A stretch of 64,000 nucleotides of DNA, taken from assembly GCF_900107435.1 (NCBI RefSeq), contig NZ_FNPZ01000003.1, forward strand, positions 682,001 to 746,000, read 5' to 3'. Below, in pieces: positions 1-59,692 of the stretch; positions within the stretch are counted from its first letter, which is position 1; each line of letters begins with the position of its first letter. The notes under the pieces are model-generated. The model did no database searches. It saw only the letters and a program-made list of their open reading frames with translations, and had not been told where the DNA came from. Made by a program: the position numbers and the translations under genes. Origin of the DNA: Herbiconiux ginsengi. GTDB lineage: Bacteria; Actinomycetota; Actinomycetes; Actinomycetales; Microbacteriaceae.

Positions 1-2
1 AC

Positions 3-407
3 CGCCGCGCCGCCCGCCTGCACGAGAAGGTGCTCGCCGGCGCCGACGTCTGCTTCGTGAACCACTCGGGCGGCGTCGAACCCGTGCGCCGATTCATCGC
101 CGAGAGCCACGGGCTGGGCATCGCGCCCGCCTTCATCCCGTGCGTGCCGATGGTGATCGACGCCGGGAGCGCGTCGCTGCTGAAGTCGTTCACGACACTG
201 GTGCTGCCCGAGGGGTTCCTCGACGGCATCCTGCACGCCGCGCATCCGTACGACGCAGCACTGGATGCGATCACCCGGCTCTGCGAGGAGTTCCTGGCGG
301 TCGATGGAGTGGCCGGCGTCAACCTCTCGGGCGGCCCTGCGGCGGGCGCCGAAGTGGCCTTCGCCGACGCGATGGGTGTGGTGGCCGAGCGACTCGGTCT
401 CGGCTGA
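3..407 (+). CDS. Methylenetetrahydrofolate reductase-like protein (C-terminal part)
   Basis: The open frame enters from the left edge, so only about 134 C-terminal residues are visible and the true start lies outside. The pattern of a strand ending in FVNHSGG, then IAPAFIPCVPMV, then LPEGFLDGI, an alternating helix, and GVAGVNLSGG resembles the last strands of the methylenetetrahydrofolate reductase TIM barrel, which binds FAD and folate. This is a fold-level resemblance seen by eye. The protein could be a divergent MTHFR paralogue of one-carbon catabolism rather than MetF. It is followed after 58 bases by the decarboxylase gene on the same strand. Confidence 0.55.
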   Translation, partial: RRAARLHEKVLAGADVCFVNHSGGVEPVRRFIAESHGLGIAPAFIPCVPMVIDAGSASLLKSFTTLVLPEGFLDGILHAAHPYDAALDAITRLCEEFLAVDGVAGVNLSGGPAAGAEVAFADAMGVVAERLGLG

Positions 408-4890: not shown

Positions 4891-5466
4891 TCAGCCGGGG
4901 AGCAGCGCGGTCTGCCAGCCGTCGGTGGTGCGGCGGAACTCGGTGCGCCGGCTCGCGGTGTCGGGGCGGCCCTCCCAGAAGGTGAGGCGCACCGGGCGCA
5001 CCAGGAATCCCGACCAGGTGGGCGGCGGGTCGAGGGCGCCCTCCGGATGCGCAGCGTCGAACTCCGCCCAGCGAACCAGGCGTTCTTCGAGGGGCAAGGC
5101 CGCGAACTCGGGGGTGTTCAGCCAGGCGAGCAACTGCAGGTAGCGCGAGCGGTGCCGGTAGGCCCAGAGTTCCTCGGCGTCGTCGGCGCGGGAGACGTCG
5201 CCCTGCACCACGAGCTGCCGGCCGGGCCAGAGCAGGGTGAGCGCTGCCCGCGGATCACCGGTGACATCGGTCACCTTGCGCGAGCGCGAGTCGGTGTGGA
5301 AGAAGAAGCCCCGCTCGTCGTACTCGCTGAGCAGCACGGTGCGCGCATCCGGGTACCCGCTCGAGGTTCCGGTGCTGAGCGTCATGAGCGGGCGCGCGGG
5401 GTCGTCGTTCGACGGGAGCCAAGCGGCGAGCAGCCCGGCGATCTCCTCGGCGGCGGATGCGCTCAC
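4891..5466 (-). CDS. Pyridoxamine 5'-phosphate oxidase-like flavoprotein
   Basis: A 191-residue split-barrel FMN protein. It has the PNPOx signatures DARTVLLSEYDERGFFFHTD, SRKVTDVTGDPRAALTLLWP and RQLVVQGDVSRA, and a C-terminal PdxH-like dimerisation region (SGFLVRPVRLTFWEGR). True PNPOx makes pyridoxal phosphate. Here the gene is the last of a catabolic operon and its GTG start overlaps the TGA of the creatininase-family gene (GTGA at 5463-5466), so it may act as a flavin oxidase or reductase on a pathway intermediate, as PhzG does in phenazine synthesis. The long frame further upstream is a shadow of the neighbouring gene. Confidence 0.78.
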   Translation of the reverse strand: MSASAAEEIAGLLAAWLPSNDDPARPLMTLSTGTSSGYPDARTVLLSEYDERGFFFHTDSRSRKVTDVTGDPRAALTLLWPGRQLVVQGDVSRADDAEELWAYRHRSRYLQLLAWLNTPEFAALPLEERLVRWAEFDAAHPEGALDPPPTWSGFLVRPVRLTFWEGRPDTASRRTEFRRTTDGWQTALLPG

Positions 5467-6236
5467 GCCGCTCCCGAGGCGTCGAACCGGGCAACCTCGG
5501 CGAGGGCCGCGACCGTGTCGACGACCGATGCCTCGAACAGCTCCGCGCCGTAGGCCGCCGTGGCGCCGGTCGGGTCGCCGACCGTGCCATTGGTGGCGAA
5601 GTCGTTGGAGAGCCAGCCGAAGGTCACGCGCTTCTTGAAGCCGATGTGCTCGTAGCCGGCCAGGTGCTCGGGAACGCTGCGCTCGGCGAGCGAGAGGTCC
5701 ACCAGCTCGGGGCGCAGGTGCAGCACGAGCGAGGTCTCGGCGTGTCCGGCGTGGATGCCGAGGCCGAACTCCTCCGGTCCGTCGTGCGCGCCCGACGGCA
5801 CGGTCGCCCCCATCAGGAAGGTCTGCAACCCGAAGCGGCGTCGCAGCTCTCGGCAGGCCACTTGCAGCAGAGCCAGGTTGCCGCCGTGCCCGTTGAAGAA
5901 CACGAGCTTGCGAGCCGGGGTGGCGGCGATGGAGTTGCCGAGCTCGACGACGGTCTGCATCAGCGTGTCCCAACTGATCCACATCGTGCCGGGCGCCCAG
6001 TGGTGCTCGTCGGATTTCGTGTAGGCGATGGTGGGGAGGATCCAGACGTCCTGACCCTCGGCTGCGGCCCGCTCGACCGAGGCGTTGGCGACGCTGTCGG
6101 CGATGAGGTAGTCGGTCATCAGCGGCAGGTGCGGGCCGTGGTGCTCGATGGCACCGGTGGGCAGCACGATCACCGAATCGGACGAGAGCGCCGCGGTGGC
6201 TGCGGTGCCGGAGAGTTCGACGAGTCGGCGACTCAT
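5463..6236 (-). CDS. Creatininase-family metal-dependent amidohydrolase
   Basis: A 257-residue protein of the creatinine amidohydrolase/MftE/ArfB superfamily, which hydrolyses cyclic amides or formamides with two metal ions. Metal-binding motifs are intact: GAIEHHGPHLPLMTD near residue 30, FFNGHGGN near 115 and HAGHAETSL near 165. Family members open creatinine, cleave formamides in riboflavin and F420 biosynthesis, or process mycofactocin. Membership in a transporter-linked oxidation operon suggests ring opening of a lactam or imide, which is inference. The ATG at 6236 overlaps the TGA of the upstream oxidase gene (ATGA), indicating translational coupling. Confidence 0.85.
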   Translation of the reverse strand: MSRRLVELSGTAATAALSSDSVIVLPTGAIEHHGPHLPLMTDYLIADSVANASVERAAAEGQDVWILPTIAYTKSDEHHWAPGTMWISWDTLMQTVVELGNSIAATPARKLVFFNGHGGNLALLQVACRELRRRFGLQTFLMGATVPSGAHDGPEEFGLGIHAGHAETSLVLHLRPELVDLSLAERSVPEHLAGYEHIGFKKRVTFGWLSNDFATNGTVGDPTGATAAYGAELFEASVVDTVAALAEVARFDASGAA

Positions 6237-7564
6237 GCCCACTTCACCCCCGTCGGCACGGTCTCGGCCAGCGGGATCTTGCCCGGGTTGAGGAGTCCGT
6301 CGGGATCGGTCTGCGCGGCCAGCTCCTTCGTGCGCTCGACCTGGTGGTCGACGTACCACTGGTGCGGGCTGTGGAAACCGACACCGATGGCGGCGAGCCG
6401 GTCGTAGCCCGCGTACACCTCCTCGGCGCTGACGTAGGGCGCGGCGAGCATCCCGATCGGATGATCGCGCTGGGCCTCGATGTGCAGCATCCCACCGGGG
6501 TAGACCTCGTGCACCTCGTCGAGGCGTTCGACAAGGGCCGCACCGGAGACCTCGACGTGGAAGTAGGTGTCCTCGGCCGACTTCTGCAGCCACTCGATCG
6601 GGTGGTTGTAGGAGAGCATCGAGATCTTCACCGTGGCCTGCGGGCCCTCGCGCACCTCCTCCACGCGGCCGCCGGCACCCTCGACGAGCGCCGTCGCCGC
6701 GGCGACGGTCGAAGCATCGAGGATGGCGCGCATTGACGCACGACCCTTCGGGATGGCCGGGTCGTCGGGCAGGGCATCGGCGATGCGCGGCAGATCGGCC
6801 GAGACCAGGCGGGGCGTGGGTTCCAGCCAGCCGACCTGGCGGATGACGGAGGTCGCGTCGGCGAACGACGGGAAGCTGGCGTAGAAGCCGACCCACTCCT
6901 GGACCGGCTCGAGCGCGATGGTGGCGCGGGCGATGATGCCGGCCGTGCCGTAGGTGTGCACGTAGGGTTGTGCGGCTTCGCCCTCGAGGTGCACGAGCTC
7001 GGCGACCGGAGAGGCGTGCACGACGTCGAGCGCCAGCACGTAGCGGCCGCTCATGTTCGAGCCGTGCTTGATCGATCCCGTGCCGCCCGAGCCGCCGGAC
7101 AGGAAGCCGCCGATCGTCGACTGGGCGGTGGAGGGGTACATCAGGATCTGCTGCCCGGCTTCGCGCGCGGCCTGTTCGATGGCGACCATGGTCGCGCCGG
7201 CTTCGGCCACGAGGTAGCCCTCGCCCACCTCGACCACGGCCCGGGCCTTCGACGTGTCGAGCACCAGCCCGCCCTCGAGGGGGATGGCCTGGCCGTAGTT
7301 GCCCGTGCCCTTGCCGCGCGGCGTCACGGCGACGCCGTGGCGCACCGCAGCGGCGACGGTCTGGACGATCTGCTCGGCGCTCGCCGGGAAGGCCACGATG
7401 TCGGCGAGCCCGAGCGGAAGCTGCTCGGCCAGGATCGGCGACATCTTCGCGCCGTCGAGCGAGGCCTTCTCGCGGCCACGGAGTTCGGTGGTGATCCCGC
7501 GCTCGCCGAGCAACTCGGTGAGTTCGGCAGCGAGAGCGGCGATCTGGTCGGGGGAGGCGGTCAT
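6233..7564 (-). CDS. FAD-linked oxidase (VAO/GlcD type)
   Basis: A 443-residue protein with an N-terminal PCMH-type FAD-binding domain (FPASAEQIVQTVAAAVRHGVAVTPRGKGTGNYG, then TIGGFLSGGSGGTGSIKHGSN) and a C-terminal substrate domain ending in the family signature TDPDGLLNPGKIP. Relatives oxidise 2-hydroxy acids, lactams or aldoses and pass electrons to oxygen or quinone. No His or Cys that would mark bicovalent FAD attachment is obvious. The start at 7564 has a good AGAGGA ribosome site. It lies between the dehydrogenase and the creatininase-like hydrolase, so it plausibly oxidises the ring before or after opening. Confidence 0.85.
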   Translation of the reverse strand: MTASPDQIAALAAELTELLGERGITTELRGREKASLDGAKMSPILAEQLPLGLADIVAFPASAEQIVQTVAAAVRHGVAVTPRGKGTGNYGQAIPLEGGLVLDTSKARAVVEVGEGYLVAEAGATMVAIEQAAREAGQQILMYPSTAQSTIGGFLSGGSGGTGSIKHGSNMSGRYVLALDVVHASPVAELVHLEGEAAQPYVHTYGTAGIIARATIALEPVQEWVGFYASFPSFADATSVIRQVGWLEPTPRLVSADLPRIADALPDDPAIPKGRASMRAILDASTVAAATALVEGAGGRVEEVREGPQATVKISMLSYNHPIEWLQKSAEDTYFHVEVSGAALVERLDEVHEVYPGGMLHIEAQRDHPIGMLAAPYVSAEEVYAGYDRLAAIGVGFHSPHQWYVDHQVERTKELAAQTDPDGLLNPGKIPLAETVPTGVKWA

Positions 7565-7617
7565 GGTGAAGTCCTCTGGTGCGTGGATGATTCGAATGAA
7601 GCGGGTGACGGGCGGGG

Positions 7618-8391
7618 TCAGTGCATGACCATGCCGCCCGTGACGTTGACGGCCTGGCCGGTCATGTAGTCGGCGTCGGCGGAGGCGAGGAAGGCGGCGA
7701 CGCCGGCGACGTCGGCCGGGTCGGCGAGCCGGCCGAGCGGCGAGTAGCTCGACCACTCGGTGACATCCGCCTCGGTGCGGGTGGCGGCGCCCATGTCGGT
7801 GAGCACGTAGCCGGGGCAGATGCAGTTGGCCGTGATCCCGGATGCGCCGAGTTCGAGCGCGGTCACCCGGGTGAGGGCGATCACGGCGGCCTTGGAGGCG
7901 GCGTAGTGCGCCTGCCCTGCGCCGCCGGTCTTGCCGGCCATGCTGGCGAGGTTCACGATCTTGCCGCCCGTGCCGGCCGCGATCATCGATCGGGCCGCCA
8001 CCTGGGTGGTGACGAGCATGGCCGTGGTGTTGATGGCGAAGACGGTGTCCCACTCGTCGACGGTGATGTCGAGCAGCGAGCCGAAACGCAGGATGCCGGC
8101 GTTGTTGACGAGCACGTCGATGCCGTCGAGGGCCTCGATGGCCCGGCCCAGCGCATCCGTGGTGTTCGACGGATCGCTGAGGTCGGCGGGAACGAAGTGG
8201 CAGCCCAGTTCGCCGGCGAGGGCGGAGCCCTGCTCGGCGAGGCGGTCGAGGACGCTGATCTCAGCACCCTCGGCCGCACAGCGCCGGGCGATGGAGGCGC
8301 CGATCCCCCGCGCTCCGCCCGTGACCACGATGCGCGTTCCGGCGAGCCGGGAGCTCGTCGTGCGGCGATCGGTCACGGGGCGGAGCGACAT
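7618..8391 (-). CDS. Short-chain dehydrogenase/reductase
   Basis: A 257-residue classical SDR. It has the Rossmann motif TGGARGIG near residue 25, the NNAG motif (VLVNNAGIL), the catalytic Ser in NLASMAG, the YAASK Tyr-Lys pair, and the ICPGYVLTDM segment. Asp in the second strand (SVLDRL) suggests NAD rather than NADP. It will interconvert an alcohol and a ketone. The gene is in the middle of the catabolic operon, 53 bases upstream of the FAD-oxidase start; substrate unknown. Confidence 0.88.
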   Translation of the reverse strand: MSLRPVTDRRTTSSRLAGTRIVVTGGARGIGASIARRCAAEGAEISVLDRLAEQGSALAGELGCHFVPADLSDPSNTTDALGRAIEALDGIDVLVNNAGILRFGSLLDITVDEWDTVFAINTTAMLVTTQVAARSMIAAGTGGKIVNLASMAGKTGGAGQAHYAASKAAVIALTRVTALELGASGITANCICPGYVLTDMGAATRTEADVTEWSSYSPLGRLADPADVAGVAAFLASADADYMTGQAVNVTGGMVMH

Positions 8392-8455
8392 GGGATCAGT
8401 GCCTTTCAGTGGGTTTGTGAATCAGTGCGGTTTCGAAGGGTCGGGATGCAGCCGC

Positions 8456-9637
8456 TCAGCTGGCCGGGAGGCCGATCGAGGTGTCGATGTACTCGTTGGT
8501 GTAGATGTCGTCCACGGTCAGACCGTCGGCCGGGGTGGCGCCGATCTTCTCGAGGATCGGCACGGCCTTGTCGAAGAACGACGACATCCGGGCCTCGTCG
8601 AGGTCGCCGATGGTGTCGTTCGCGCCGTTGGAGACGAGACCGAGGTCCTGCATCTGCTTCACCGAGAAGTCGGCGACGCCCTGCGAGTAGACCCAGCCGG
8701 TGTCGAACTGGTCGACCAGGTCGAGGATCAGCGAGTTCACCGGCGCGGGGTCGGCGAAGTAGTCGACCTCGGCCTGCTGCAGAACGGGCACCAGGGCCTT
8801 CAGGCAGTCGGCGTTGGCTTCGAGGTCACCCGTGCGGACGGCCATCACCGACTGGTAGTAGTCCCAGCCGGTGTCGTTGATGAGCTGGAAGTCGACCGGC
8901 TTCATCCAGTCGCTCACCTCGTTCTCGTAGATGTAGGGTTCGGCCGAGGCGAAGCCCTGCTGGGCCGCCTTGCCGGCGTCGGCGACGAAGTTCGCCGGCG
9001 TGCCGTCGTAGCTGCCGTCGGCCTGCGCCTCGGGCACGATGCCCTGCTCCTTCAGGTACTCCATGTAGGTGGAGTCGGCGAAGTAGCGCACGATCGCGCC
9101 CTTGCTCGTGACGTCCTTGATGGTCTTGGCGTCGGGGTAGGTTGCCGGGTCCCACATGATCATCAGCGGGCTCTTCTCCAACGGGGCGAAGACGCCCGTG
9201 GTGGGGAAGTCGGCCGAGTTCTGGATCTGCTCGTCGGTCGAGACGTAGCCGAGCATGATGTCGGGGTCCTGGTACATGATCGAGGTCACGCTCTGGAAGC
9301 CGATGGCCGGGCCGCCCGAGCGGATCTCCACGTTGACGCCCGTGTACTCGCCGCCGCTGTAGAGCGGGCCGCTGACCTTCTTGTTGGCCGCGTCGATCTT
9401 CGGGTCGGGGCCGAGCAGCTCGTAGAGGTGGCCGTGCTCCGCCTCCGGGTTCCAGTCGGTCTGCAGCACGATGTTCGACGGGCAGACGCCCGACAGGTCG
9501 GTCGCGCCGATGGTGAGGTCGGCCGACGGGGTCGAGTCGTCGGTGGCCGACGAACTGCTGCTACAGGCTGAGAGTGCGATCGCGGTGGTCGCGACGAGTC
9601 CGGCTGCGAGGACGAGCCGGGTTCGGGTGCTGCGCAT
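8456..9637 (-). CDS. ABC transporter substrate-binding lipoprotein, NMT1/THI5-like
   Basis: A 393-residue lipoprotein. It has a signal peptide (about residues 1-24) with lipobox ALSAC followed by a serine-rich tether. The mature part has the NMT1/SsuA-like layout (IVLQTDWNPEAEHGHLYELL, SGGPAIGF, MYQDPDIMLGYVSTDEQIQN), as in binding proteins for nitrate, sulfonates, thiamine precursors, riboflavin and other small rings. With the adjacent permease and ATPase it forms a complete importer that feeds the enzymes encoded downstream. A strong AGAAGGAG site precedes the ATG. The ligand is unknown and would be the best clue to the pathway. Confidence 0.9.
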   Translation of the reverse strand: MRSTRTRLVLAAGLVATTAIALSACSSSSSATDDSTPSADLTIGATDLSGVCPSNIVLQTDWNPEAEHGHLYELLGPDPKIDAANKKVSGPLYSGGEYTGVNVEIRSGGPAIGFQSVTSIMYQDPDIMLGYVSTDEQIQNSADFPTTGVFAPLEKSPLMIMWDPATYPDAKTIKDVTSKGAIVRYFADSTYMEYLKEQGIVPEAQADGSYDGTPANFVADAGKAAQQGFASAEPYIYENEVSDWMKPVDFQLINDTGWDYYQSVMAVRTGDLEANADCLKALVPVLQQAEVDYFADPAPVNSLILDLVDQFDTGWVYSQGVADFSVKQMQDLGLVSNGANDTIGDLDEARMSSFFDKAVPILEKIGATPADGLTVDDIYTNEYIDTSIGLPAS

Positions 9638-9721
9638 GTCATCTCCTTCTAGGTGCTGCGGGGTGGTGCTGGACGGGATGGTGCGGGTGGTGCAGGGTGG
9701 GACGGATGAGTCGGAGGCGGC

Positions 9722-10570
9722 TCAGTTGGCCGAGAAGTCGTACCACTTGCCGACGACGCGTTTGCCGATCCAGCCGAACAGCGCGAAGATCGCGACGCCG
9801 AGCAGGGCGGCGACGAAGATCGTGGCGAACAGTTCGGCCGAGCGGAGCCGCGCGGTGTAGGTGCTGAGCAGCGAGCCGAGTCCGGGCTCGCCGCGACGGA
9901 AGAAGAAGTCGCCCACGATCGCGCCGACGACGGCGAGACCGGCGGAGATCCGCATCCCGGCGAAGATCGCCGGAAGGGCGGCGGGGAACTCCAGCTTCGT
10001 GAGGATGGTCCAGCGGCCGGCACGTTGCAGCTGGAACAGCTCGCGCTGACCGGGGTCGACGGACTGCAGGCCGAAGAGCGTGTTCGACACCATCGGGAAG
10101 AGCGCGATCATGATGCAGACGATCACGCGGGCCGGGTATTCGAAACCGAACCAGAAGCCGATCAGCGGCACGAGGGCGAGGATCGGGATGCACTGCAGCA
10201 CCACCGCATAGGGGTAGAGCGAGCGCTCCACCCACTTGGCCTGGCTCATGGCCACGGCCCAGAGCACGCCGATCACGATGGCGAAGGCGAGCCCCACGAG
10301 CGCGACCAGGGTGGTGCGGCCGAGGGCTTGCATGATCTCGACGAAGGTGGCCGGATCGAAGAACGCGGCCACCACCTCGTGCGGCGGGGGCATCAGGAAG
10401 CGGCGCTTCTCGTCGAGCACGAGGAAGGTGATGGCATACCAGACCCCGATGAGGCCGAGGAACACCAGCAGCGGAGGCAGCCAGGTGCTCGTGCGGTTCT
10501 TCGCCTTGCGCACCGTGGCCGAGCGGGCGAGCGTGCGCACCTTCGGGGGTGCGGGGGGAGTGGTGGTCAT
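9722..10570 (-). CDS. ABC transporter permease (SsuC/TauC type)
   Basis: A 282-residue membrane protein with about six helices. The first spans residues 31-50, and a typical binding-protein-dependent inner-membrane region follows (YPYAVVLQCIPILALVPLIGFWFG, then the EAA-like loop QLQRAGRWTILTKLEFPAALPAIFAGMRI). It belongs to the nitrate/sulfonate/taurine importer class, matching the binding protein and ATPase beside it. Its ATG overlaps the stop of the ATPase gene by four bases (ATGA), so the two are translationally coupled. Confidence 0.9.
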   Translation of the reverse strand: MTTTPPAPPKVRTLARSATVRKAKNRTSTWLPPLLVFLGLIGVWYAITFLVLDEKRRFLMPPPHEVVAAFFDPATFVEIMQALGRTTLVALVGLAFAIVIGVLWAVAMSQAKWVERSLYPYAVVLQCIPILALVPLIGFWFGFEYPARVIVCIMIALFPMVSNTLFGLQSVDPGQRELFQLQRAGRWTILTKLEFPAALPAIFAGMRISAGLAVVGAIVGDFFFRRGEPGLGSLLSTYTARLRSAELFATIFVAALLGVAIFALFGWIGKRVVGKWYDFSAN

Positions 10571-11340
10571 GAGTGTCCCTCTCGGAGAGCGTGCGAGACC
10601 TTGCCGCAGAGTTCGGCGTATTCGGCCGTGAAGCGGATGTCGGGATCGCGCGGGAACGGGAACTCCACCGGGAACTCGTCGACGATGTGCCCCGGTCGCC
10701 CCGACATCACGATGACCCGGGTGGAGAGGTAGACCGCCTCGGAGACCGAATGGGTGATGAAGAGACCGGCGAACTGCTGCTCGGTGAAGAGCCGGATCAG
10801 TTCGTCGTTGAGGCGCTCACGGGTGATCTCGTCGAGTGCTCCGAACGGCTCGTCGAAGAGGAAGAGCTCGGGGTTCAGGGTGAGCGAGCGGGCGAGGCTC
10901 GTGCGCATCTTCATGCCGCCGGAGAGCGTCTTCGGCAGGTGCTTCTCGAACCCGGAGAGCCCCACCAGGTCGATGGCCTCCTTCGCGGTGGCGGTGCGCT
11001 GCTTCTTCGGGATGCCGTTGAGCTCGGCGAGCAGTTCGACGTTCGACTGCACGTCGCGCCAGGGCAGCAGCGTCGCGTCCTGGAACACGTAACCGATGCG
11101 GCTGGTGTCGACCTGGGTCACGCCCTCGGTGGCCGGTGTCAGGCCCGAGGCGATGCGCAGCAGGGTCGACTTGCCGCATCCGGACGGCCCGACGACGGTC
11201 ACGAACTCGCCGCGATTGACTGTCAGGGAGACGCCGGAGAGGGCGGTGGTGCCGTTCGGGAACGTCATGGCGACGTTCTCGAAGCGCAACAGCTGATCGG
11301 TGGTGGTCGCCGGAGCGACGGGGGAGGGGGCGATGGTCAT
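10567..11340 (-). CDS. ABC transporter ATP-binding protein (SsuB/TauB type)
   Basis: A 257-residue ATPase. Walker A is GPSGCGKST near residue 42, the Q-loop lies in YVFQDATLLPW, the signature is LSGGMKMRTSLARSL, Walker B is LFLFDEPFGALD, and the switch histidine is in FITHSVSEAVYL. It energises import by the adjacent permease. The ATG at 11340 is preferred because GAGGTG lies 9 bases upstream. A GTG at 11352 overlapping the stop of the preceding amidohydrolase is an alternative that would add four residues. Confidence 0.9.
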   Translation of the reverse strand: MTIAPSPVAPATTTDQLLRFENVAMTFPNGTTALSGVSLTVNRGEFVTVVGPSGCGKSTLLRIASGLTPATEGVTQVDTSRIGYVFQDATLLPWRDVQSNVELLAELNGIPKKQRTATAKEAIDLVGLSGFEKHLPKTLSGGMKMRTSLARSLTLNPELFLFDEPFGALDEITRERLNDELIRLFTEQQFAGLFITHSVSEAVYLSTRVIVMSGRPGHIVDEFPVEFPFPRDPDIRFTAEYAELCGKVSHALREGHS

Positions 11341-11348
11341 GGAGCTTC

Positions 11349-12647
11349 TCACCTCGTTTCGAGAATGGGTTCGGCTGGTGCGGGGATGGTTGGCGGTGCG
11401 GATGCGGTCAGGTCGGGCAGCGCGATCGACCGGGTGACCTGGCTCCGGGCGACCAGGCGACCGGCGTGCACGACGAGACGATCGGCGGAGGCGTTGGCGA
11501 TCGCATCCGAGAGGCTGCGGCCGCGCACGGCGAGGAATTCGGCTCGCGCGCCCACCTCGACGCCGGCGACCGGGAGGCTCATCACGTCGCGGGCCCCGCA
11601 GCTGACCGCGGCGTACGCCTCGTCGAGCGTGAGATGGCCGGCCGTGACCAGCAAGGAGGCGGTCTCCAGGGCGTCGCTCCGGCCCACGGGGTTGAACGGA
11701 TCGCGCACGTTGTCGGCGCCCGCGCCGAGCCGGGCGCCCGCGTCGAGCAGGCTCCGCACGGCGGTGAGGCCGCGTGGGGTGGAGACCGGATGCTCCCAGC
11801 CCTGCAGGTAGAGATTCGTGATCGGGAGGGTGACGATGCCGATGTCGCTGCGCACGATCTCGGCGATGACCTCGTCGAGTTCGGCGGGAGGAAGGGTGCC
11901 GAGGCGAACGCAGTGACCGGCCGTCACGGGGCGGCTCGCATCCCAGTCGCGCACGACCTCGGCCAGGGTGCGCAGGGTGAGTGCGCCGTCGAGGCTCTCG
12001 TCGGTGTGCATGTCGACACCGACTCCGCGGAGCTCGGCCAGGGCGAGCAGTCGGCGCAGGTCGGCTTCGGGGTCGTCGGCCAGGTGCGGTGCGCCGCCGA
12101 CGAGATCGACACCGAGGTCGAGGGCTTCGAGCACGTCGTCGGAGGGCGCCGTGGGGCCGGCCAGGGCGACGAGTTCGAGGTCGAGGAGTCCGCGGAGCTC
12201 TTCGCGCACCTGAGCCAGGGCGCGCACACCGCGCATCGGGTCGGGGCCGCTCAGGATGTCGACGTGGCAGCGGATGGCCGTGGTGCCGTTCGCGAGCATC
12301 CGGAGCGCCTGCTCACGGGCCCGGTCGGCGATGCTCTCGGTCGACATCGTCGCGGCGTAGCGCTTCCAGGACTCGATGGCGAGGCCGAGGTCGCCCATCG
12401 GAGGCTCGATCAGGTCCCAGGAGAGCGCCTTGTCGAGGTGGGCGTGTGGCTCGGCGGGGGCGGTGAGCAGGAGAAACCCGTCGAGGGCGAGGGTCGTGTC
12501 GTTCGCGAGGTCCCTCGGGTCGGGTCGACTCGAGCCGGCCGGCGTCACCGCGATGACGCTGTCGCCGGTGATCTCGACGTCGACGACGCGGCCGTCGGGG
12601 AGCGTCGCATCCGTCAGTCGGGTGAGTCGCTGGGGGAGGGTGTTCAT
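11349..12647 (-). CDS. Cytosine deaminase-like amidohydrolase
   Basis: A 432-residue amidohydrolase-superfamily protein resembling CodA and related deaminases of N-heterocycles. Metal ligands look intact: HAHLDK (strand 1, near residue 63), HTDE (strand 5), TAGHC (strand 6) and an Asp in GAGADNVRDPFNPVG (strand 8). CodA-type enzymes remove an exocyclic amine from cytosine, isoguanine or other rings, and some relatives open cyclic amides. It is the first gene of the minus-strand catabolic operon. The ATG at 12647 has a GGGGAG site 8 bases upstream; upstream ATGs in frame are less well supported. Confidence 0.82.
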   Translation of the reverse strand: MNTLPQRLTRLTDATLPDGRVVDVEITGDSVIAVTPAGSSRPDPRDLANDTTLALDGFLLLTAPAEPHAHLDKALSWDLIEPPMGDLGLAIESWKRYAATMSTESIADRAREQALRMLANGTTAIRCHVDILSGPDPMRGVRALAQVREELRGLLDLELVALAGPTAPSDDVLEALDLGVDLVGGAPHLADDPEADLRRLLALAELRGVGVDMHTDESLDGALTLRTLAEVVRDWDASRPVTAGHCVRLGTLPPAELDEVIAEIVRSDIGIVTLPITNLYLQGWEHPVSTPRGLTAVRSLLDAGARLGAGADNVRDPFNPVGRSDALETASLLVTAGHLTLDEAYAAVSCGARDVMSLPVAGVEVGARAEFLAVRGRSLSDAIANASADRLVVHAGRLVARSQVTRSIALPDLTASAPPTIPAPAEPILETR

Positions 12648-12782
12648 CGGATCGATCTCCCCGCTGTCGATGGGCATGGTTGCCCGGGTGATGATCATCG
12701 CGACGTCGGGGTGACCGTGGTGGATGTTGATGGGTTCAACACGGCTCACGCTACGGACGGCTCGTTTCCGGCACGTAACGCA

Positions 12783-12798
12783 AACATTTCCGATTGTT
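12783..12798. promoter_or_regulatory. Imperfect inverted repeat, possible operator of the XRE-cupin regulator
   Basis: AACATTTCCGATTGTT has arms AACA and TGTT with one more matched pair inside. It sits in the 232-base divergent gap between the catabolic operon and its likely regulator, in an AT-rich patch that contrasts with the surrounding DNA. The rest of the gap (12648-12879) shows no gene. Confidence 0.35.
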
Positions 12799-12879
12799 AA
12801 TTGCCGCTGATGCCGATTTCGCGCGCGGGTGGGTTCGTGGTTACTGTCTGAGGTGTTCCGACCGAAAGGGGCGCGAATC

Positions 12880-13470
12880 GTGTCCGGAAGCGTCGCCCTC
12901 GACGAGCAGACCGAGCGCCTCGGCGCGCGCATCCGTTCGGTGCGCCAGGCGCGTGGGCTCACATTGGTGGAGCTGGCCCGTCTGGCCGAGCTCTCGCATC
13001 CGTTCCTCAGCCAGCTCGAACGGGGGCAGGCACGGCCCAGCATGCTCTCGCTCGAGCGGATCGCCCGGGCACTCGGGTCGAGTCAGATCGAGCTGATCGC
13101 GGCGGCGACCGACGACCTGCTCCCCGGGGCCGGCGTCTCCCGTGTGTCACTCGTGCGGAAGGCCGAAGGGCCGCAGGGGCCGTTCGGCGGAGGCGCGGCG
13201 CGCATTCTCGTGCACGGCGACGGATCGTTCATCCCGATGGAGTTCCGCGGTTCGAACCGCGAGCCGGGGGAGTTCTACCACCACGCCGAGGCCGAGTTCC
13301 TGCACGTCGTGAGCGGGGCGGTGCTCGTCGACCTCGCCGACGACGGCGAGTTCGAACTGGTGCCGGGCGACTCGATCCACTACGCCGGAGGCACGCTGCA
13401 CCGGTGGTGTTCGCTCGGCGAAGACGAATACCGGCTGTTCATCGTCAAGGAGCGGAGGGCCTCATCGTGA
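12880..13470 (+). CDS. XRE-family transcriptional regulator with C-terminal cupin
   Basis: A 196-residue regulator. A helix-turn-helix occupies about residues 15-68 (LGARIRSVRQARGLTLVELARLAELSHPFLSQLERG), and a cupin_2 domain follows (REPGEFYHHAEAEFLHVVSGAVLVDL, PGDSIHYAGGTLHRW), which usually senses a small ligand or metal. Such regulators control adjacent catabolic operons, and this one diverges from the operon starting at 12647. GTG 12880 is chosen for the GAAAGGGG site upstream; the frame is open to 12829. Its stop overlaps the start of the next gene (GTGA). Confidence 0.88.
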   Translation: MSGSVALDEQTERLGARIRSVRQARGLTLVELARLAELSHPFLSQLERGQARPSMLSLERIARALGSSQIELIAAATDDLLPGAGVSRVSLVRKAEGPQGPFGGGAARILVHGDGSFIPMEFRGSNREPGEFYHHAEAEFLHVVSGAVLVDLADDGEFELVPGDSIHYAGGTLHRWCSLGEDEYRLFIVKERRASS

Positions 13471-14480
13471 CCGCAGTGCTCCATGAGATCGATACGGTCG
13501 TGACCGCGGCGACGCCGGTGGCCGAGGATGTCGTGCTGCTCGAGCTGCGGGCGGCCGATGGTTCCGCGCTGCCCGCGTGGGAGCCCGGCGCGCATGTCGA
13601 CGTCGTCGTGCAGCCCGGCGTGGAGCGGCAGTATTCGCTGTGCGGCGACCCGGGCGACCTCTCCCGCTACCACGTCGCGGTGCTGCGTGAACCCGACGGA
13701 CGGGGTGGATCGGAGCACCTGCACGCGCACGTCTCGGAGGGGTCGTCGTTGCGCATCCGGGGTCCACTGAACCATTTCGCTCTCGTGCCTCCGACCGCGT
13801 CCTCGAACTATGCCTTCGTGGCGGGCGGGATCGGCATCACGCCCGTGGTGCCGATGATCCGGGCCGTCGAGGCCGCCGGCGCCTCCTGGACCCTCGACTA
13901 CGCCGGGCGCTCGCTCGAACGGATGCCCTTCGTCGACGAACTGGTGCGGGAGTTCGGCGAGCGGGTGCGGGTGCATGTGCCGGGTTCGCCCGTGGAGCAG
14001 GAGTCGTCGGGGGCGACGGATGCCACCGGGTCCCGCTTCGACGTGACGTCGCTCTCGGCGCGACTGGCCGACGGGCCGGTGTCGGTGTACTGCTGCGGCC
14101 CGGCACGGATGCTCGCGGCCCTCGAGCAGGAATCCGCGGCATCCGGATGGCCCGCCGGCACGTTGCACCTGGAGCGGTTCGAGGCACGCGAAGTCACCGA
14201 ACCGGTGCGGCACGAAGCGTTCGAGGTGGAGCTCGAGATCTCGGGCATGACCCTGTCGGTGCCGCCCGACCGGTCGATTCTCGAGGTGGTGGAGGAAGCC
14301 GGCGTGCTGGTGCTCTCGTCGTGCCGCGAGGGCACTTGCGGAACCTGCGAGACGCCCGTGGTCTCGGGCGAGGTCGACCACCGCGACTCGGTGCTCACCC
14401 CCGACGAGCAGGAGGCGAACGAGGTGATGATGATCTGCGTCTCGAGGGCGGCGTGCCCCCGGTTGGTGCTGGAGCTCTAG
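13467..14480 (+). CDS. PDR/VanB-type oxygenase reductase (FMN/NAD/[2Fe-2S])
   Basis: A 337-residue class IA reductase: an N-terminal flavin-binding barrel (RQYSLCGDP, FMN type), an NAD-binding domain (VAGGIGITPVVPMI, then VYCCGPARML) and a C-terminal plant-type ferredoxin with the cluster motif CREGTCGTCET plus a distal Cys in MMICVSRA. These proteins pass electrons from NADH to Rieske oxygenases such as vanillate or N-demethylating enzymes. No Rieske alpha subunit is encoded in this window, so its partner must be elsewhere. The gene is translationally coupled to the XRE-cupin regulator (GTGA overlap at 13467-13470). Confidence 0.9.
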   Translation: MTAVLHEIDTVVTAATPVAEDVVLLELRAADGSALPAWEPGAHVDVVVQPGVERQYSLCGDPGDLSRYHVAVLREPDGRGGSEHLHAHVSEGSSLRIRGPLNHFALVPPTASSNYAFVAGGIGITPVVPMIRAVEAAGASWTLDYAGRSLERMPFVDELVREFGERVRVHVPGSPVEQESSGATDATGSRFDVTSLSARLADGPVSVYCCGPARMLAALEQESAASGWPAGTLHLERFEAREVTEPVRHEAFEVELEISGMTLSVPPDRSILEVVEEAGVLVLSSCREGTCGTCETPVVSGEVDHRDSVLTPDEQEANEVMMICVSRAACPRLVLEL

Positions 14481-15838
14481 GCTCGACGGGTGGCGAGCAA
14501 GGTCGTCAGATCGGATGCCAGGGCGCGCTGGTCGTGGGCGACGAGTTCGTAGTCGCGCACCACGACCCGGCCGCCGACGACGACGTGGCGGGGGCGACGG
14601 CCGGGGGAGGCCCACAGGAGTCCCGCCACGGGATCGGCCACGCCGGCATCCGCGACGCCGGAGACGTCCCAGACGCAGAGATCGGCGGCCGCCCCCGGGC
14701 GCAGGTGGCCGAGCTCGGGGCGGCCCAGACCGATCGCCGATCCCTCGGACGCCATCGACAGGATGCTCCGCGCGTCGATCGGAGGGCCGGCGAGCGGCGC
14801 CACCTGCATCGCGAGCCGCGCGTCGGCGAGCAGGTGTCCGGCGTCGTTGCTGCCGCCCCCGCTCGTACCGAGGCCTACCGGGATCCCCGCCGCGCGCAAC
14901 GCCGCGACCGGCGCGATGCCCCAGCCCATCGGCAGGTCACAGCCCGGAGCATGCGTGGCGGTGACGCCGCGCGACGCCAGCAGCGCGATCTCCTCGTCGG
15001 TCACGGCGCAGAGGTGGGCGAGCGTCACGTCGGGCGCCAGCCAGCCCCACTCCTCGAGGAGCGCGATCGGCCGCTTGCCGTACTTCTCGAGGGCGATCGC
15101 GACGTCGACCTGTTCGTTCGCCTGGGTGCGGCGACGAAGGCCGCGCCGCGCAGCGACCTCGCCGAGCAACCGGAACGTGGCCTCGCTGTCGCTGTGCACG
15201 CCTGCCGGGCCGACCGCGAGCTGGAACATTCCGTCGGCGGAGACCCCGCCCCGCGCATCCGGCACCAGGGCCTCGGCGATCGCGTCGGCCGAGGCCGCGG
15301 CCTCTTCGGGATCGTCGCGGGCCGAGCCGCGCACGAAGGCGAGACGGCCGCCGAGTTCCCGGGCTGCGTCCGCCGTCGCTCGCGCGATGCCGACGGTGTC
15401 GCTGCCGGCCGGCCAGGTGAGGTGATGATCGGCCACGGTCGTGACCCCGGCGAGCAGGCCCTCGGCCACCCCGACGAGCGCGGAAGCGCGGGCGAGTTCG
15501 GGATCGATGCCGATTTCGGCATACGCCGCGGCCATCGTGGGCAGCCAGACGTGCATCGGCACTCCGCGGGTGCCCGGCAGTGTGCGGAATGCGCTCTGCA
15601 GCAGGTGGTGGTGGGCGTTGACGAGGCCGGGGGTCACCACGCATCCACTCGCGTCGAGGTGCTCCACCGGGCCGGTCGCGCCGGCTGAATCGACGAGTCC
15701 GTACGGCCCGGAGGCGTCGGGTGACGGGGCGTCAGGGGCGGCCATGGTCGGGCCGACCACGAGCCGGGCGGCATCATCCGCACTCCGTTCCGTCGTGGCG
15801 TCGATGACGATGTGGGCGGCGTCGTGGATGATGAGCAT
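14477..15838 (-). CDS. Amidohydrolase of the guanine/8-oxoguanine deaminase class, variant active site
   Basis: A 453-residue member of the COG0402 deaminase family. The first-strand metal motif is present (NAHHHLLQ) and so is the sixth-strand His (LAHLC). The usual HxHxxE motif reads RTQANEQ, with Gln239 in place of the metal-binding His. The usual catalytic Asp of the GxDG loop is Ser326 (GTSGGGSND). The paralogue at 17017-18435 keeps both residues. The protein may therefore be inactive, use a different metal site, or belong to a conserved subfamily with changed chemistry. Its 3' end overlaps the converging reductase gene by four bases. Confidence 0.75.
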   Translation of the reverse strand: MLIIHDAAHIVIDATTERSADDAARLVVGPTMAAPDAPSPDASGPYGLVDSAGATGPVEHLDASGCVVTPGLVNAHHHLLQSAFRTLPGTRGVPMHVWLPTMAAAYAEIGIDPELARASALVGVAEGLLAGVTTVADHHLTWPAGSDTVGIARATADAARELGGRLAFVRGSARDDPEEAAASADAIAEALVPDARGGVSADGMFQLAVGPAGVHSDSEATFRLLGEVAARRGLRRRTQANEQVDVAIALEKYGKRPIALLEEWGWLAPDVTLAHLCAVTDEEIALLASRGVTATHAPGCDLPMGWGIAPVAALRAAGIPVGLGTSGGGSNDAGHLLADARLAMQVAPLAGPPIDARSILSMASEGSAIGLGRPELGHLRPGAAADLCVWDVSGVADAGVADPVAGLLWASPGRRPRHVVVGGRVVVRDYELVAHDQRALASDLTTLLATRRA

Positions 15839-15923: not shown

Positions 15924-17027
15924 ATGCTCGAACTCGCTTCGTCGGTGCTCGCATCGCTGGGTGGCGGGCACCGGCTCGCAGTCGCGACGGTCGTCGGAGT
16001 CGACGGCAGTGCGCCGCGGGCGCTCGGCACCTCGATGGCGGTCGACGACGAGGGCCGGGTGATCGGCAGCATCTCGGGTGGCTGCGTCGAGGGTGCGGTC
16101 TACGAGGCCTGCGAACGGGTGCTGGCGTCGGGCGTCGCCGAGCTCTGCGAGTTCGGATTCAGCGACGCCGACGCCTTCGCGGTGGGTCTCGCGTGCGGGG
16201 GACGGCTGCGCGTGTTCGTGCAGGAGTTCGGGCTTCCGGATGCGCGCAACGCGCTTTCCGGGCCCGTTCGCGACGAGCTCGAGCGAGCCCGTGACGGGCG
16301 CGCGGCCGGGCTCGCACTGGTCATGACGGGCGACCTGGTGGACGTGCTGGCGGCGAAGGACGGCCCCGAGGGGTCCGTCGTGCGTGCGCGGGTACTCGCG
16401 GCGCTGGACGCCTCGGTTCACGCCGGTCGTTCGGTGCGACGACGCGTCGAGTGTGACGGCGAGACGGTCGAGGCGGTATTCCTGGTGAGTGCCCCGCCGC
16501 CGCGGATGATCATCTTCGGAGCGGTCGACTTCTCCGTCGCGCTCTCGAACGCCGCCGCACTGCTGGGCTATCGGGTCACGGTCTGCGACGCCCGGCCGGT
16601 CTTCGCGACGCCCGAACGATTCCCGTCGGCCGAGGTGGTGAACCAGTGGCCCTCGGACTACCTGGCGCAGACCGCCGTCGACGAGCGCACAGCCCTCTGC
16701 ATCCTGACCCACGACGACAAGTTCGACATCCCGCTCCTCGAAGTGGCCCTGGCGCTTCCTGTCGCCTACGTCGGCGCGATGGGATCACGGGTCACACACG
16801 ACCGGCGCGTTCGGGCTCTGCTCGACCGGGGCCTCGATCCCGCCGCCCTCGACTCGTTGCACTCGCCGATCGGACTCGACATCGGCGCATCCTCGCCGGA
16901 AGAGACGGCCGTCTCGATCCTCTCCGAGATCCTCGCCGTGCGCACCCGGCGGTCAGGCGCGTCGCTGCGCACCACCGAGGGCCCCATCCATCGACCGAGC
17001 GCCGTGGAGGCCGCGAATGAGCAGTGA
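15924..17027 (+). CDS. xdhC: XdhC-family molybdenum-hydroxylase maturation factor
   Basis: A 367-residue protein with both XdhC/CoxI domains: an N-terminal part with GSAPRALGTSMAV and GSISGGCVEGAVYEACE, and a C-terminal Rossmann domain (IIFGAVDFSVALSNAAALLGYRVTVCDAR, later YVGAMGSR). XdhC proteins bind molybdenum cofactor, protect it while it is sulfurated, and insert it into xanthine-dehydrogenase-type enzymes. The likely client is the hydroxylase at 20206-23082. The ATG has a GGAGGGAC site. The last 11 bases overlap the next gene, so the two are co-translated. Confidence 0.9.
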   Translation: MLELASSVLASLGGGHRLAVATVVGVDGSAPRALGTSMAVDDEGRVIGSISGGCVEGAVYEACERVLASGVAELCEFGFSDADAFAVGLACGGRLRVFVQEFGLPDARNALSGPVRDELERARDGRAAGLALVMTGDLVDVLAAKDGPEGSVVRARVLAALDASVHAGRSVRRRVECDGETVEAVFLVSAPPPRMIIFGAVDFSVALSNAAALLGYRVTVCDARPVFATPERFPSAEVVNQWPSDYLAQTAVDERTALCILTHDDKFDIPLLEVALALPVAYVGAMGSRVTHDRRVRALLDRGLDPAALDSLHSPIGLDIGASSPEETAVSILSEILAVRTRRSGASLRTTEGPIHRPSAVEAANEQ

Positions 17028-18435
17028 CCTGCGGATCGTCATCGAGAACGCCTACGTCGCGACGGTGGACATAGCCGGAACGGAATACGACTCCGGGCAT
17101 GTGGTGGTCGACGGGCGGGAGATCGTCGCCGTGGGTGCCGGGCCGGCTCCGGCATGGGCGCTGGCGGGGTCGTCGAACCCGGCTTCGGCGGTCGCTGCGC
17201 CGGCATCCGCCGCCGATCGCTCCGTGACTCGCATCGACGGCACCGGGCATCTCCTGACGCCGGGTCTCGTCAACACGCACCACCACCTCTACCAGTGGCT
17301 GACCCGGGGGATCGCGCAGGACTCGATCCTCTTCGATTGGCTCACCGCGCTCTACCCCACCTGGTCGAAGATCACGGCCGACACGGTGGGCGCCGGGGCT
17401 CTCGGCGGGATGGCGGTCGGCGCGCTCTCGGGGTGTTCGACGATGGGCGATCACCATTACGTGTTCCCGCGCGGGGCGGGAGACATCCTGGGCGGCATCG
17501 TCGACGCGGCCGGCTCGCTCGGCGTGCGGCTGCACGGCACGCGCGGATCGATGGATCTCGGCGCGTCGCAGGGCGGGCTTCCCCCCGACTTCGCCGTCGA
17601 GACGACCGCCGACGCGCTGCAGGCGAGTGCGGATGCGGTCGCCCGATTCCACGACCCCTCGCGGGAGGCGATGGTCAAGATCGCGATCGCGCCCTGCTCA
17701 CCCTTCTCGGTCACCTCCGATCTGCTCCGCGAGGCCGCCGTTCTCGCCCGATCGCTCGACGTTCGGCTGCACACGCACGGCTCCGAGACCGTGGAGGAAG
17801 ACGCGTACTGCCTCGAACGCTTCGGCCGCACCCCGACCGAGTATCTCGACGATCTCGGCTGGCTCGGCGACGACGTCTGGATGGCGCACTGCGTGCACCT
17901 CGACGAGAAGGCGATCGCGCGCTTCGCCGCCACGGGCACGGGCGTCGCGCACTGCCCCTCGTCGAACGCGCGGCTCGCGGCCGGCATCGCGCCCGTTCCG
18001 CAACTGCTCGCCGCGGGTGTGCCGGTCGGACTCGGGGTCGACGGATCGGCATCCAACGAATCGGGCCAGCTGGGCACGGAGATCCGGATGTCGGTGCTGG
18101 TCAACCGGCTGCGGGCGGGCGCCGACGGGATGAGCGGCCGGTCGGGACTCTACATCGCCACGATGGGTGGGGCGCGGGTGCTCGGCCGCGACCGCGAGCT
18201 CGGCTCGATCGAGGTCGGCAAGCTCGCCGACCTGGCCCTCTGGAAGATCGACGGCGTGGAGCACGCGGGGATCGTCGATCCCGTCGCCGCGCTCACGCTG
18301 GGTGCGCAGCCACCTCTCGCCCTGCTGCTCGTCGACGGGCGCGAGGTCGTGCGCGACGGTGCGCTGGTGCGGGTCGACGAGCGGGACGTCGCCCGGAGGG
18401 TCACCGCGGCGGTGGGAGAGCTCCTCGACCGCTGA
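17017..18435 (+). CDS. 8-oxoguanine deaminase-type amidohydrolase
   Basis: A 472-residue deaminase with an intact active site: NTHHHLYQW (strand 1), H252-T-H254-GSE (strand 5), MAHCVH (strand 6) and Asp342 in GVDGSASNESG (strand 8). The HHHLYQWLTRGIAQD segment is typical of bacterial 8-oxoguanine deaminases, which turn 8-oxoguanine into urate plus ammonia; guanine or an isocytosine-type ring are alternatives. It overlaps xdhC by 11 bases, which links deamination to the molybdenum hydroxylase. E. coli has a similar pairing of an amidohydrolase (SsnA) with XdhD. Confidence 0.82.
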   Translation: MSSDLRIVIENAYVATVDIAGTEYDSGHVVVDGREIVAVGAGPAPAWALAGSSNPASAVAAPASAADRSVTRIDGTGHLLTPGLVNTHHHLYQWLTRGIAQDSILFDWLTALYPTWSKITADTVGAGALGGMAVGALSGCSTMGDHHYVFPRGAGDILGGIVDAAGSLGVRLHGTRGSMDLGASQGGLPPDFAVETTADALQASADAVARFHDPSREAMVKIAIAPCSPFSVTSDLLREAAVLARSLDVRLHTHGSETVEEDAYCLERFGRTPTEYLDDLGWLGDDVWMAHCVHLDEKAIARFAATGTGVAHCPSSNARLAAGIAPVPQLLAAGVPVGLGVDGSASNESGQLGTEIRMSVLVNRLRAGADGMSGRSGLYIATMGGARVLGRDRELGSIEVGKLADLALWKIDGVEHAGIVDPVAALTLGAQPPLALLLVDGREVVRDGALVRVDERDVARRVTAAVGELLDR

Positions 18436-59586: not shown

Positions 59587-59692
59587 CCTTCGATCCTAAA
59601 TCGCGTTCGGGAGCGGGGTGTTTCCCGCGCGTAACAAGGCGCAACGGTCGCCGCGGTCAGACGGCGGCCGCGCGTGAGAGGCGGCGGCGGCG

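What the first reader, a model, noticed from the sequence alone, without database searches (positions are those of the whole stretch)
4891..14480. Catabolic operon with an unfamiliar enzyme set and unknown N-ring substrate
Seen: eight minus-strand genes with overlaps or short gaps (amidohydrolase, NMT1-type ABC importer, SDR, FAD oxidase, creatininase-like hydrolase, PNPOx-like flavoprotein), diverging from an XRE-cupin regulator plus oxygenase reductase. Known: CodA-like enzymes deaminate rings, creatininase-like enzymes open cyclic amides, NMT1-type binding proteins take small ring compounds. Inference: import, deamination, oxidation and ring opening of a lactam, imide, pyrimidine or pterin-like compound by a route I cannot match to any described pathway.
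Basis: partly seen in the sequence, partly recalled or inferred. Interest (0 to 1): 0.7.

Follow-up and report, generated by a model that had tools for sequence, protein, structure and literature searches.

The report
Nitrogen-starvation operon for pterin breakdown
A plant- and soil-associated actinobacterium carries a conserved operon, apparently switched on when nitrogen runs short, that probably imports and dismantles ring compounds of the folate (pterin) type; a related core gene set occurs in Rhizobium and Klebsiella, but the actinobacterial version has extra, unusual enzymes and no step has been tested.

Summary
In detail: eight minus-strand genes (4891-12647) form one tight operon, divergent from an XRE-cupin regulator and a VanB-type reductase. 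The functional unit is larger: it includes a deaminase-like protein (14477-15838) and an MTHFR-like protein ending near position 407. In the best 80 of 210 named relatives, CodA-like, creatininase, PNPOx, importer and reductase genes occur in 72-75; a related core is found in Rhizobium, Klebsiella, Pantoea and others. The FAD enzyme's best structure match is 6v42, titled 'flavin oxygenase ... involved in folate catabolism', and the Rhizobium cluster's FAD enzyme is its close full-length relative. A GlnR-type nitrogen box sits in the promoter, exact in 46 of 75 upstream regions against 0 for the reversed pattern. Best reading: nitrogen-controlled import and breakdown of pterins; all chemistry is inferred. 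New features: the 14477 protein has lost two canonical metal ligands in 60 of 60 sequences, and it and the MTHFR-like protein were found only in genomes that have the FAD enzyme (17 of 17, 16 of 16). New variant of a sparsely described pathway; substrate unproven.

The parts
1..407 (+). 3' end of an MTHFR-like protein with an N-terminal MetV-type Cys motif (402 aa; starts about 800 bases before the window)
   Evidence: Own-genome stretch L146:3199-4407; PF02219 match at C4:681697-682245, with a second, canonical MetF elsewhere; PF12225 match; 16 of 297 genomes have it, all 16 with the FAD enzyme
4891..5466 (-). PNPOx-like flavoprotein, last gene of the operon
   Evidence: PF01243 and PF10590 over cut-off; below the pdxH cut-off; 75 of 80 loci
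5463..6236 (-). creatininase-family amidohydrolase, proposed ring-opening step
   Evidence: PF02633 220 bits; below the creatininase and MftE cut-offs; 74 of 80 loci
6233..7564 (-). FAD-dependent oxidase/oxygenase of the 6v42 type
   Evidence: PF01565; phmmer to 6v42 E 2.6e-45, next hit 1.1e-11; model pLDDT 87.7, Foldseek first hit 6v42 E 5.2e-33
7618..8391 (-). SDR-family dehydrogenase (variable part)
   Evidence: 46 of 80 loci
8456..9637 (-). substrate-binding lipoprotein, NMT1/THI5 fold
   Evidence: model pLDDT 88.9; first PDB matches are a thiamin-bound SBP, a formylaminopyrimidine-binding protein and Thi5; 74 of 80 loci
9722..10570 (-). ABC permease
   Evidence: PF00528; 72 of 80 loci
10567..11352 (-). 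ABC ATPase (GTG start at 11352 or a later start at 11340)
   Evidence: PF00005; 73 of 80 loci
11349..12647 (-). CodA-like amidohydrolase, proposed pterin deaminase, first gene of the operon
   Evidence: closest solved relative E. coli CodA E 1.5e-28; H68/H70, H214, E217, H245, D312 kept in window and all 8 proteobacterial cluster members compared
12764..12779 (-). GlnR-type box GTTAC-N6-GAAAC, 117 bases before the CodA-like start
   Evidence: 2 in window, 0.19 expected; conserved in aligned Herbiconiux promoters; exact in 46 of 75 CodA upstream regions, 0 of 75 for the reversed pattern
12829..13470 (+). XRE-family regulator with cupin domain
   Evidence: PF13560, PF01381, PF07883; 54 of 80 loci
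13467..14480 (+). VanB/PDR-type reductase (flavin, NAD, 2Fe-2S)
   Evidence: PF00111, PF00175; 74 of 80 loci; 34% identical to the reductase of the Klebsiella cluster
14477..15838 (-). TrzN/8-oxoguanine-deaminase-like protein lacking two canonical metal ligands (Gln239, Ser326)
   Evidence: alignment to 3ls9; invariant in 60 of 60; 65 of 80 loci; 17 of 297 genomes, all 17 with the FAD enzyme
15924..18435 (+). context: XdhC-family protein and 8-oxoguanine deaminase (NF006055 over cut-off)
   Evidence: xdhC in 34 of 80 loci
20206..23957 (-). context: xanthine dehydrogenase-family oxidase (fused FeS+Mo subunit, separate FAD subunit)
   Evidence: xdhA in 15 of 80 loci within reach

Best explanation
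The operon is a nitrogen-scavenging pathway for pterins (the ring part of folates or related pteridines). Under nitrogen limitation a GlnR-type regulator, with the local XRE-cupin protein sensing a pathway compound, turns on the divergent promoter. The NMT1/THI5-type ABC importer takes up the pterin; the CodA-like hydrolase removes its 2-amino group; the FAD enzyme, fed or balanced by the VanB-type and PNPOx-type redox proteins, oxidises the ring; the creatininase-family hydrolase opens the resulting lactam; the 14477-15838 protein, the SDR and the neighbouring molybdenum hydroxylase act on intermediates; the MTHFR-like protein handles a one-carbon or tetrahydrofolate-type intermediate. Shown: gene set, conservation, catalytic residues, fold matches, promoter box, co-occurrence. 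Inferred: the substrate class, every reaction and their order.
For: FAD enzyme: 6v42 ('flavin oxygenase ... involved in folate catabolism') is far ahead of all other matches by sequence (2.6e-45 against 1.1e-11) and by fold (5.2e-33 against 6.9e-25). The Rhizobium johnstonii cluster's FAD enzyme matches 6v42 over residues 6-463 at E 1.6e-215, and that cluster has CodA-like, creatininase and NMT1-type importer genes. Independent line: an MTHFR-family (folate-binding family) paralogue occurs in 16 of 297 genomes of the order, all 16 with the FAD enzyme (hypergeometric 4.6e-20, not corrected for kinship), and is next to PNPOx (8 loci), reductase (4) or CodA-like (4) genes in the same direction. 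Published pterin deaminases lie near predicted cytosine deaminases in the tree and have an 'endoribonuclease' gene downstream (PMC9513972: passages; section 8); in Klebsiella and Pantoea the CodA-like gene is followed by a RidA gene, a family often annotated so (the equation of the two names is recalled). SBP fold nearest to binders of thiamin and aminopyrimidines. Nitrogen control: box exact in 46 of 75 upstream regions, 0 of 75 reversed, 0 of 75 with spacers 4, 5, 7, 8, shuffles mean 0.12; 24 sites in the genome against 3 reversed, one before glnA; consensus gTnAc-n6-GaAAc seen in PMC10704036 (passages).
Against: The folate label rests on a PDB title; no paper on it was found and the window enzyme is only about 27-30% identical to that group. 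RidA, the NAD(P)H oxidoreductase and the RutR-like regulator of the proteobacterial clusters are absent from the window, and RidA was found in only 1 of 106 actinobacterial loci. The operon sits in a uricase/xanthine-dehydrogenase neighbourhood, which fits purines as well. The best SBP matches bind thiamin pyrimidines, not pterins. The closest CodA-like relatives on plasmids (Sinorhizobium, Paracoccus) lie by purine permease, XDH and UbiD/UbiX genes, without FAD enzyme or creatininase in the partial gene tables. 10 of 26 FAD-positive genomes lack the MTHFR-like protein and 9 of 26 the 14477-type protein at the cut-offs used. No glucarpidase was sought, and no GlnR gene was identified in this genome.
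Confidence: 0.55

Rival explanations
1. The pathway degrades a purine derivative (for example methylated or oxidised purine bases): the module removes or alters a substituent and opens the ring, and the neighbouring XDH, uricase and allantoinase finish the job; the MTHFR-like protein takes up an N-methyl carbon.
For: Uricase in 35 and xdhC in 34 of 80 loci within reach; an allantoinase-like cluster in 49 (by eye); 8-oxoguanine deaminase next door; the 14477 protein is nearest to triazine and 8-oxoguanine hydrolases.
Against: Other lineages (for example Arthrobacter L097, Cellulomonas L109, Kineosporia L134) have the module with no uricase hit in the fetched stretch; the FAD enzyme points to folate catabolism; no Rieske oxygenase lies in the cluster to remove an N-methyl (4 of 5 genomic Rieske sites looked at).
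Confidence: 0.17
2. The substrate is a thiamin-type aminopyrimidine: CodA-like deaminates it, SDR and FAD enzyme oxidise the hydroxymethyl group, creatininase-like opens the ring, formamidase/acetamidase relatives finish.
For: First fold matches of the SBP are thiamin- and formylaminopyrimidine-binding proteins and Thi5; RutR-like regulators and RutC-like RidA in proteobacterial versions; FmdA-type amidase near the module in 7 of 80 loci and in a second clade.
Against: The fold class also holds taurine, sulfonate and nitrate binders; the RutR-like scores are below the family cut-off; it does not explain the 6v42 match or the MTHFR-like partner.
Confidence: 0.12
3. A broad-range detoxification or xenobiotic (triazine, creatinine, hydantoin) operon.
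For: TrzN, AtzC and creatininase are among the closest solved relatives.
Against: All are distant and below family cut-offs; a conserved nitrogen box and old, vertically spread gene order argue for a natural nitrogen source.
Confidence: 0.04

Closest known systems
Proteobacterial clusters with a 6v42-type 'folate catabolism' flavin oxygenase (Rhizobium pRL12, Klebsiella, Pantoea, Comamonadaceae, Leisingera, Alloyangia, Palleronia)
   Same: CodA-like hydrolase, creatininase-family hydrolase, FAD enzyme and NMT1-type importer together; a VanB-type reductase in Klebsiella and Pantoea.
   Different: Window version lacks RidA, NAD(P)H oxidoreductase and RutR-like regulator; has PNPOx, SDR, XRE-cupin, the MTHFR-like protein, the non-canonical amidohydrolase and a GlnR-type box; identities only 28-39% for CodA-like and creatininase.
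Pterin deaminases Arad3529 and Variovorax sp. F1 PDA (PMC9513972; passages and section 8 seen)
   Same: CodA-like/cyclic amidine hydrolases; endoribonuclease gene downstream, as RidA follows the CodA-like gene in Klebsiella and Pantoea.
   Different: Their sequences were not held, so orthology with the window protein was not tested.
TrzN / 8-oxoguanine deaminase (COG0402-type amidohydrolases)
   Same: Full-length alignment of 14477-15838, strand-1 His pair, Glu242, His275 kept.
   Different: Strand-5 His is Gln239 and strand-8 Asp (Thr in TrzN) is Ser326 in 60 of 60 sequences; score below the 8-oxoguanine deaminase cut-off (255 against 532 bits).
GlnR regulon of actinomycetes
   Same: Box GTnAC-n6-GaAAC before the operon and before glnA.
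   Different: No binding data; GlnR gene not identified here; the M. smegmatis regulon passages seen list no creatininase.

Membership tests
6v42-type folate-catabolism cluster | FAD enzyme related to 6v42 over its length | tested here: met
6v42-type folate-catabolism cluster | CodA-like hydrolase, creatininase-family hydrolase and NMT1-type ABC importer in the same cluster | tested here: met
6v42-type folate-catabolism cluster | RidA gene in the cluster | tested here: not met
   no tblastn hit at 1e-6 in the window; 1 of 106 actinobacterial loci. Hence 'works like', not 'is a member of'
6v42-type folate-catabolism cluster | activity on folate or pterins | not testable with these tools
   needs enzyme assays
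cytosine deaminase | score over a curated cytosine deaminase cut-off | tested here: not met
   180 against 403 bits, 173 against 438, 110 against 483
cytosine deaminase | metal and proton-shuttle residues of E. coli CodA | tested here: met
   alignment to 1k6w; residue roles recalled
creatininase | score over TIGR04448 cut-off | tested here: not met
   85 against 235 bits
8-oxoguanine deaminase (14477-15838) | canonical third His and Asp metal ligands | tested here: not met
   Gln239 and Ser326 in 60 of 60
pterin deaminase (Arad3529 type) | orthology with Arad3529 or Variovorax PDA | not tested
GlnR regulon | conserved GlnR box in the promoter | tested here: met
GlnR regulon | binding and response to nitrogen limitation | not testable with these tools
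   needs EMSA/ChIP and transcriptomics

The most novel reading that the evidence does not exclude
Actinobacteria have a complete nitrogen-starvation route that mines folates or pterins, in which (a) an amidohydrolase with a new active site (Gln and Ser in place of the canonical third His and Asp ligands, as invariant as the rest of the enzyme) carries out a new ring reaction and (b) a dedicated MTHFR-MetV fusion works directly on the folate substrate or captures the one-carbon unit released from it.
Probability: 0.25. Interest if true: 0.75.

Novelty: new variant of a known kind. Interest (0 to 1): 0.55.

Why it matters
How folate and pterins are mineralised in soil and on plants is poorly known: PMC9513972 (abstract and passages seen) says the environmental degradation mechanism of folic acid has not been fully elucidated. 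If the reading is right, a widespread group of plant and soil actinobacteria (Herbiconiux, Subtercola, Agreia, Frigoribacterium, Agromyces, Microbacterium, Klenkia, Modestobacter, Nocardioides and others) uses pterins as an emergency nitrogen source, and a whole pathway becomes testable from one operon with a short list of candidate substrates. The invariant loss of two metal ligands in a well-conserved amidohydrolase is a separate enzymological puzzle.

Tried and rejected
Rieske oxygenase as partner of the VanB-type reductase: five PF00355 sites in the genome, four looked at by reading their reading frames (the fifth, L143, was not). One (L142) is a Rieske oxygenase with its own VanB-type reductase; the others read as a SufD neighbour ferredoxin, a QcrA-like protein and a FAD-linked protein. 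No partner near the operon, so an N-demethylase reading was weakened.

Thiamin-pyrimidine catabolism was the leading idea after the SBP fold search and was demoted when 6v42's title was seen; one literature search for it gave nothing relevant. Pterin deaminase literature gave one useful paper. Literature searches for the gene set gave nothing relevant; for 6v42 and bacterial folate catabolism, nothing on this cluster. Only openly licensed papers are held, so a description elsewhere is likely enough.

The second clade (Micrococcaceae-like genomes, FAD 41-45% identical) has formamidase, AtzH-amidase, flavin reductase, metallo-beta-lactamase-fold and isochorismatase genes around the core; I read it as a related pathway but did not resolve it. 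Remote neighbourhoods of the MTHFR-like gene showed a methyltransferase-like neighbour gene in five of seven stretches, unexplained; in those five genomes the MTHFR-like match is only 40-44% identical and may be a different paralogue. M20 genes near some loci are allantoate amidohydrolases, not glucarpidases (three scanned). No Rfam hit at 12400-13000. The phylum-wide sample gave the FAD enzyme in 2 of 396 genomes, both of the window's own family, so it is rare outside the order. No ah1-like match on plasmids at 1e-60.

Rows dropped: the search for related loci kept the best 80 of 210 relatives; one FAD-positive genome of the order (G185, short contig) had no 20-kb stretch fetched; 6 of the 65 loci with a 14477-type hit had no full-length reading frame and were left out of the 60-sequence alignment; 6 of 80 loci gave no usable CodA upstream region. 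Ten proteobacterial regions were read out of 109 and 141 listed records, chosen for diversity; in one (L152) the gene table is incomplete and shows neither CodA-like nor creatininase gene, and L158 has no annotated creatininase or RidA.
Full report
1. What is there. The window lies at C4:682001-746000 of a 4.85 Mb, about 69% GC actinobacterial genome. The closest named relatives of the FAD enzyme are 'Corynebacterium-like bacterium B27' (91%) and Herbiconiux species (83-89%), so it is most likely a Herbiconiux or near relative. The XRE-cupin regulator and VanB-type reductase diverge from them.

2. It is a conserved unit, and larger than reported. Searching 297 genomes of the order with the FAD enzyme gave 26 positives. 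Twenty-kilobase stretches around 24 of the 25 foreign positives show the same set. A second scan gave 210 named relatives, of which the best 80 were kept. In those 80 loci, some cut short by contig ends, the counts are FAD 80, CodA-like 75, PNPOx 75, creatininase 74, reductase 74, SBP 74, ATPase 73, permease 72, 14477-type protein 65, XRE 54, SDR 46, MTHFR-like 47 (45 and 2 by two queries), uricase 35, xdhC 34, xdhA 15. The run CodA-ATPase-permease-SBP followed by FAD/creatininase-PNPOx is unbroken in 57 of 80.

3. The gene at 14477-15838 looks like an 8-oxoguanine deaminase or TrzN, but the alignment with TrzN 3ls9 shows the strand-5 His replaced by Gln239 and the strand-8 Asp/Thr position by Ser326; both are invariant in 60 of 60 sequences. 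The roles of these positions are recalled, not from a call. The MTHFR-like protein (402 aa, ending near window position 407) has a MetV-type Cys motif (PF12225); a canonical MetF lies elsewhere in the genome. In the 297 order genomes the 14477-type protein (E up to 1e-100) occurs in 17 and the MTHFR-like one (E up to 1e-40) in 16, in each case only in FAD-positive genomes; hypergeometric values are 1.6e-21 and 4.6e-20 without correction for kinship. In 7 of the 16 the MTHFR-like gene lies far from the FAD gene or on another contig, yet still only in FAD-positive genomes. Conversely 9 and 10 of the 26 FAD-positive genomes lack them. Where it is near, it can be co-directional with PNPOx (8 loci), reductase (4) or CodA-like (4) genes.

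4. Nitrogen control. Aligned Herbiconiux promoters share long conserved blocks, including GTTAC-N6-GAAAC. This is the GlnR box of Streptomyces coelicolor, gTnAc-n6-GaAAc (PMC10704036, passages). In the window it lies at 12764-12779, 117 bases from the CodA-like start; expected by chance in the whole window 0.19, found 2. The genome has 24 exact sites against 3 for the pattern read backwards; one lies about 80 bases before glnA, another before an aminotransferase gene that follows the AtzH-amidase gene upstream of the window. Ten flanking genes were annotated; five of the ten had no family hit at 1e-20. Across relatives the box is exact in 46 of 75 CodA upstream regions (36 of 65 outside Herbiconiux), 0 of 75 for the reversed pattern and for spacers 4, 5, 7, 8; shuffled upstreams give 0.12 on average, at most 2. 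Of 65 sites in all 80 loci, 45 lie before CodA-like or XRE. This makes a nitrogen-scavenging role the best-supported functional statement. A GlnR gene was not looked for.

5. Substrate class. The SBP model matches first a thiamin-bound SBP (4nmy), a formylaminopyrimidine-binding protein (3ix1) and Thi5: the NMT1/THI5 fold, hence a small planar ring is plausible. The CodA-like protein keeps the catalytic residues of CodA but not its Gln156 region and is below cytosine deaminase cut-offs. The FAD enzyme model matches 6v42 first, 'Crystal structure of the flavin oxygenase with cofactor bound involved in folate catabolism', as does its sequence. The plasmid collection shows related FAD enzymes mostly in Rhizobium, also in Klebsiella, Pantoea, Agrobacterium and Rhodobacterales. 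Ten such regions were read: an annotated NMT1-type or unspecified ABC binding protein in all ten, a CodA-like or amidohydrolase gene in nine, a RidA gene (once under an old name) in nine, a creatininase gene in eight. In three, the regulator is RutR-like, below the RutR cut-off. The Rhizobium FAD enzyme is a full-length close relative of 6v42 (E 1.6e-215), so these clusters are the setting of the enzyme its depositors assign to folate catabolism. Known pterin deaminases fit this picture: the Variovorax enzyme lies near predicted cytosine deaminases in the authors' tree and has an endoribonuclease gene downstream (PMC9513972, passages and section 8); RidA proteins have often been annotated as endoribonucleases (recalled).

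6. Mechanism proposed. Import; removal of the 2-amino group (CodA-like); oxidation by the FAD enzyme with VanB/PNPOx redox partners; lactam opening by the creatininase-family hydrolase; further steps by the 14477 protein, SDR and molybdenum hydroxylase; one-carbon or tetrahydrofolate handling by the MTHFR-like protein; ammonia to glutamine synthetase. Only the gene set, residues, folds and promoter box are shown; each reaction and the order are inferred.

7. Against it. The folate label is a structure title; identity to that group is low (27% in the fold alignment; 30-32%); RidA and the other proteobacterial accessories are missing; purine genes surround the operon; the nearest plasmid relatives of the CodA-like protein sit with purine permease, XDH and UbiD/UbiX genes, without FAD enzyme or creatininase in the partial tables. 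Because RidA, a recurrent feature of the known clusters, was tested and not found, I say that the operon works like the 6v42-type clusters, not that it is a member.

8. Verdict. Observation confirmed; interpretation partly right; new variant of a known but sparsely described kind. The points of real interest are the nitrogen box, the non-canonical amidohydrolase and the MTHFR-like partner.

Noticed in passing
window 59620-59635 (-): A second exact GlnR-type box in the window; the downstream minus-strand frame (203 aa) had no NCBIfam hit at 1e-20.
   Followed up: partly
L139 (contig filed as Stenotrophomonas maltophilia P13): Carries the module in the same order as Microbacterium loci L133 and L138; probably an actinobacterial contaminant contig in that assembly.
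   Followed up: no
L056:5631-8646, upstream of the window: FmdA-type amidase and an AtzH-domain/amidase fusion, followed by a GlnR-type box and an aminotransferase gene: a second likely nitrogen-scavenging group about 12-16 kb before the operon's neighbourhood.
   Followed up: partly
L159-L163: In five Kineosporia-type genomes the remote MTHFR-like gene region has a class I methyltransferase-like gene beside it.
   Followed up: partly
L125, L129, L131: Blastococcus/Trujillonella-type loci carry a relative of the 2-oxoglutarate oxygenase of the Klebsiella cluster near the module.
   Followed up: no
L192 and L193 (Sinorhizobium pSymB, Paracoccus plasmid): CodA-like relatives beside XDH, purine permease and UbiD or UbiX genes: perhaps another ring-degradation route that includes a prenyl-flavin decarboxylase.
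   Followed up: no
window 20206-23082 (-): Xanthine dehydrogenase-family protein in which the 2Fe-2S and molybdenum subunits are fused in one chain, next to molybdenum cofactor genes.
   Followed up: no
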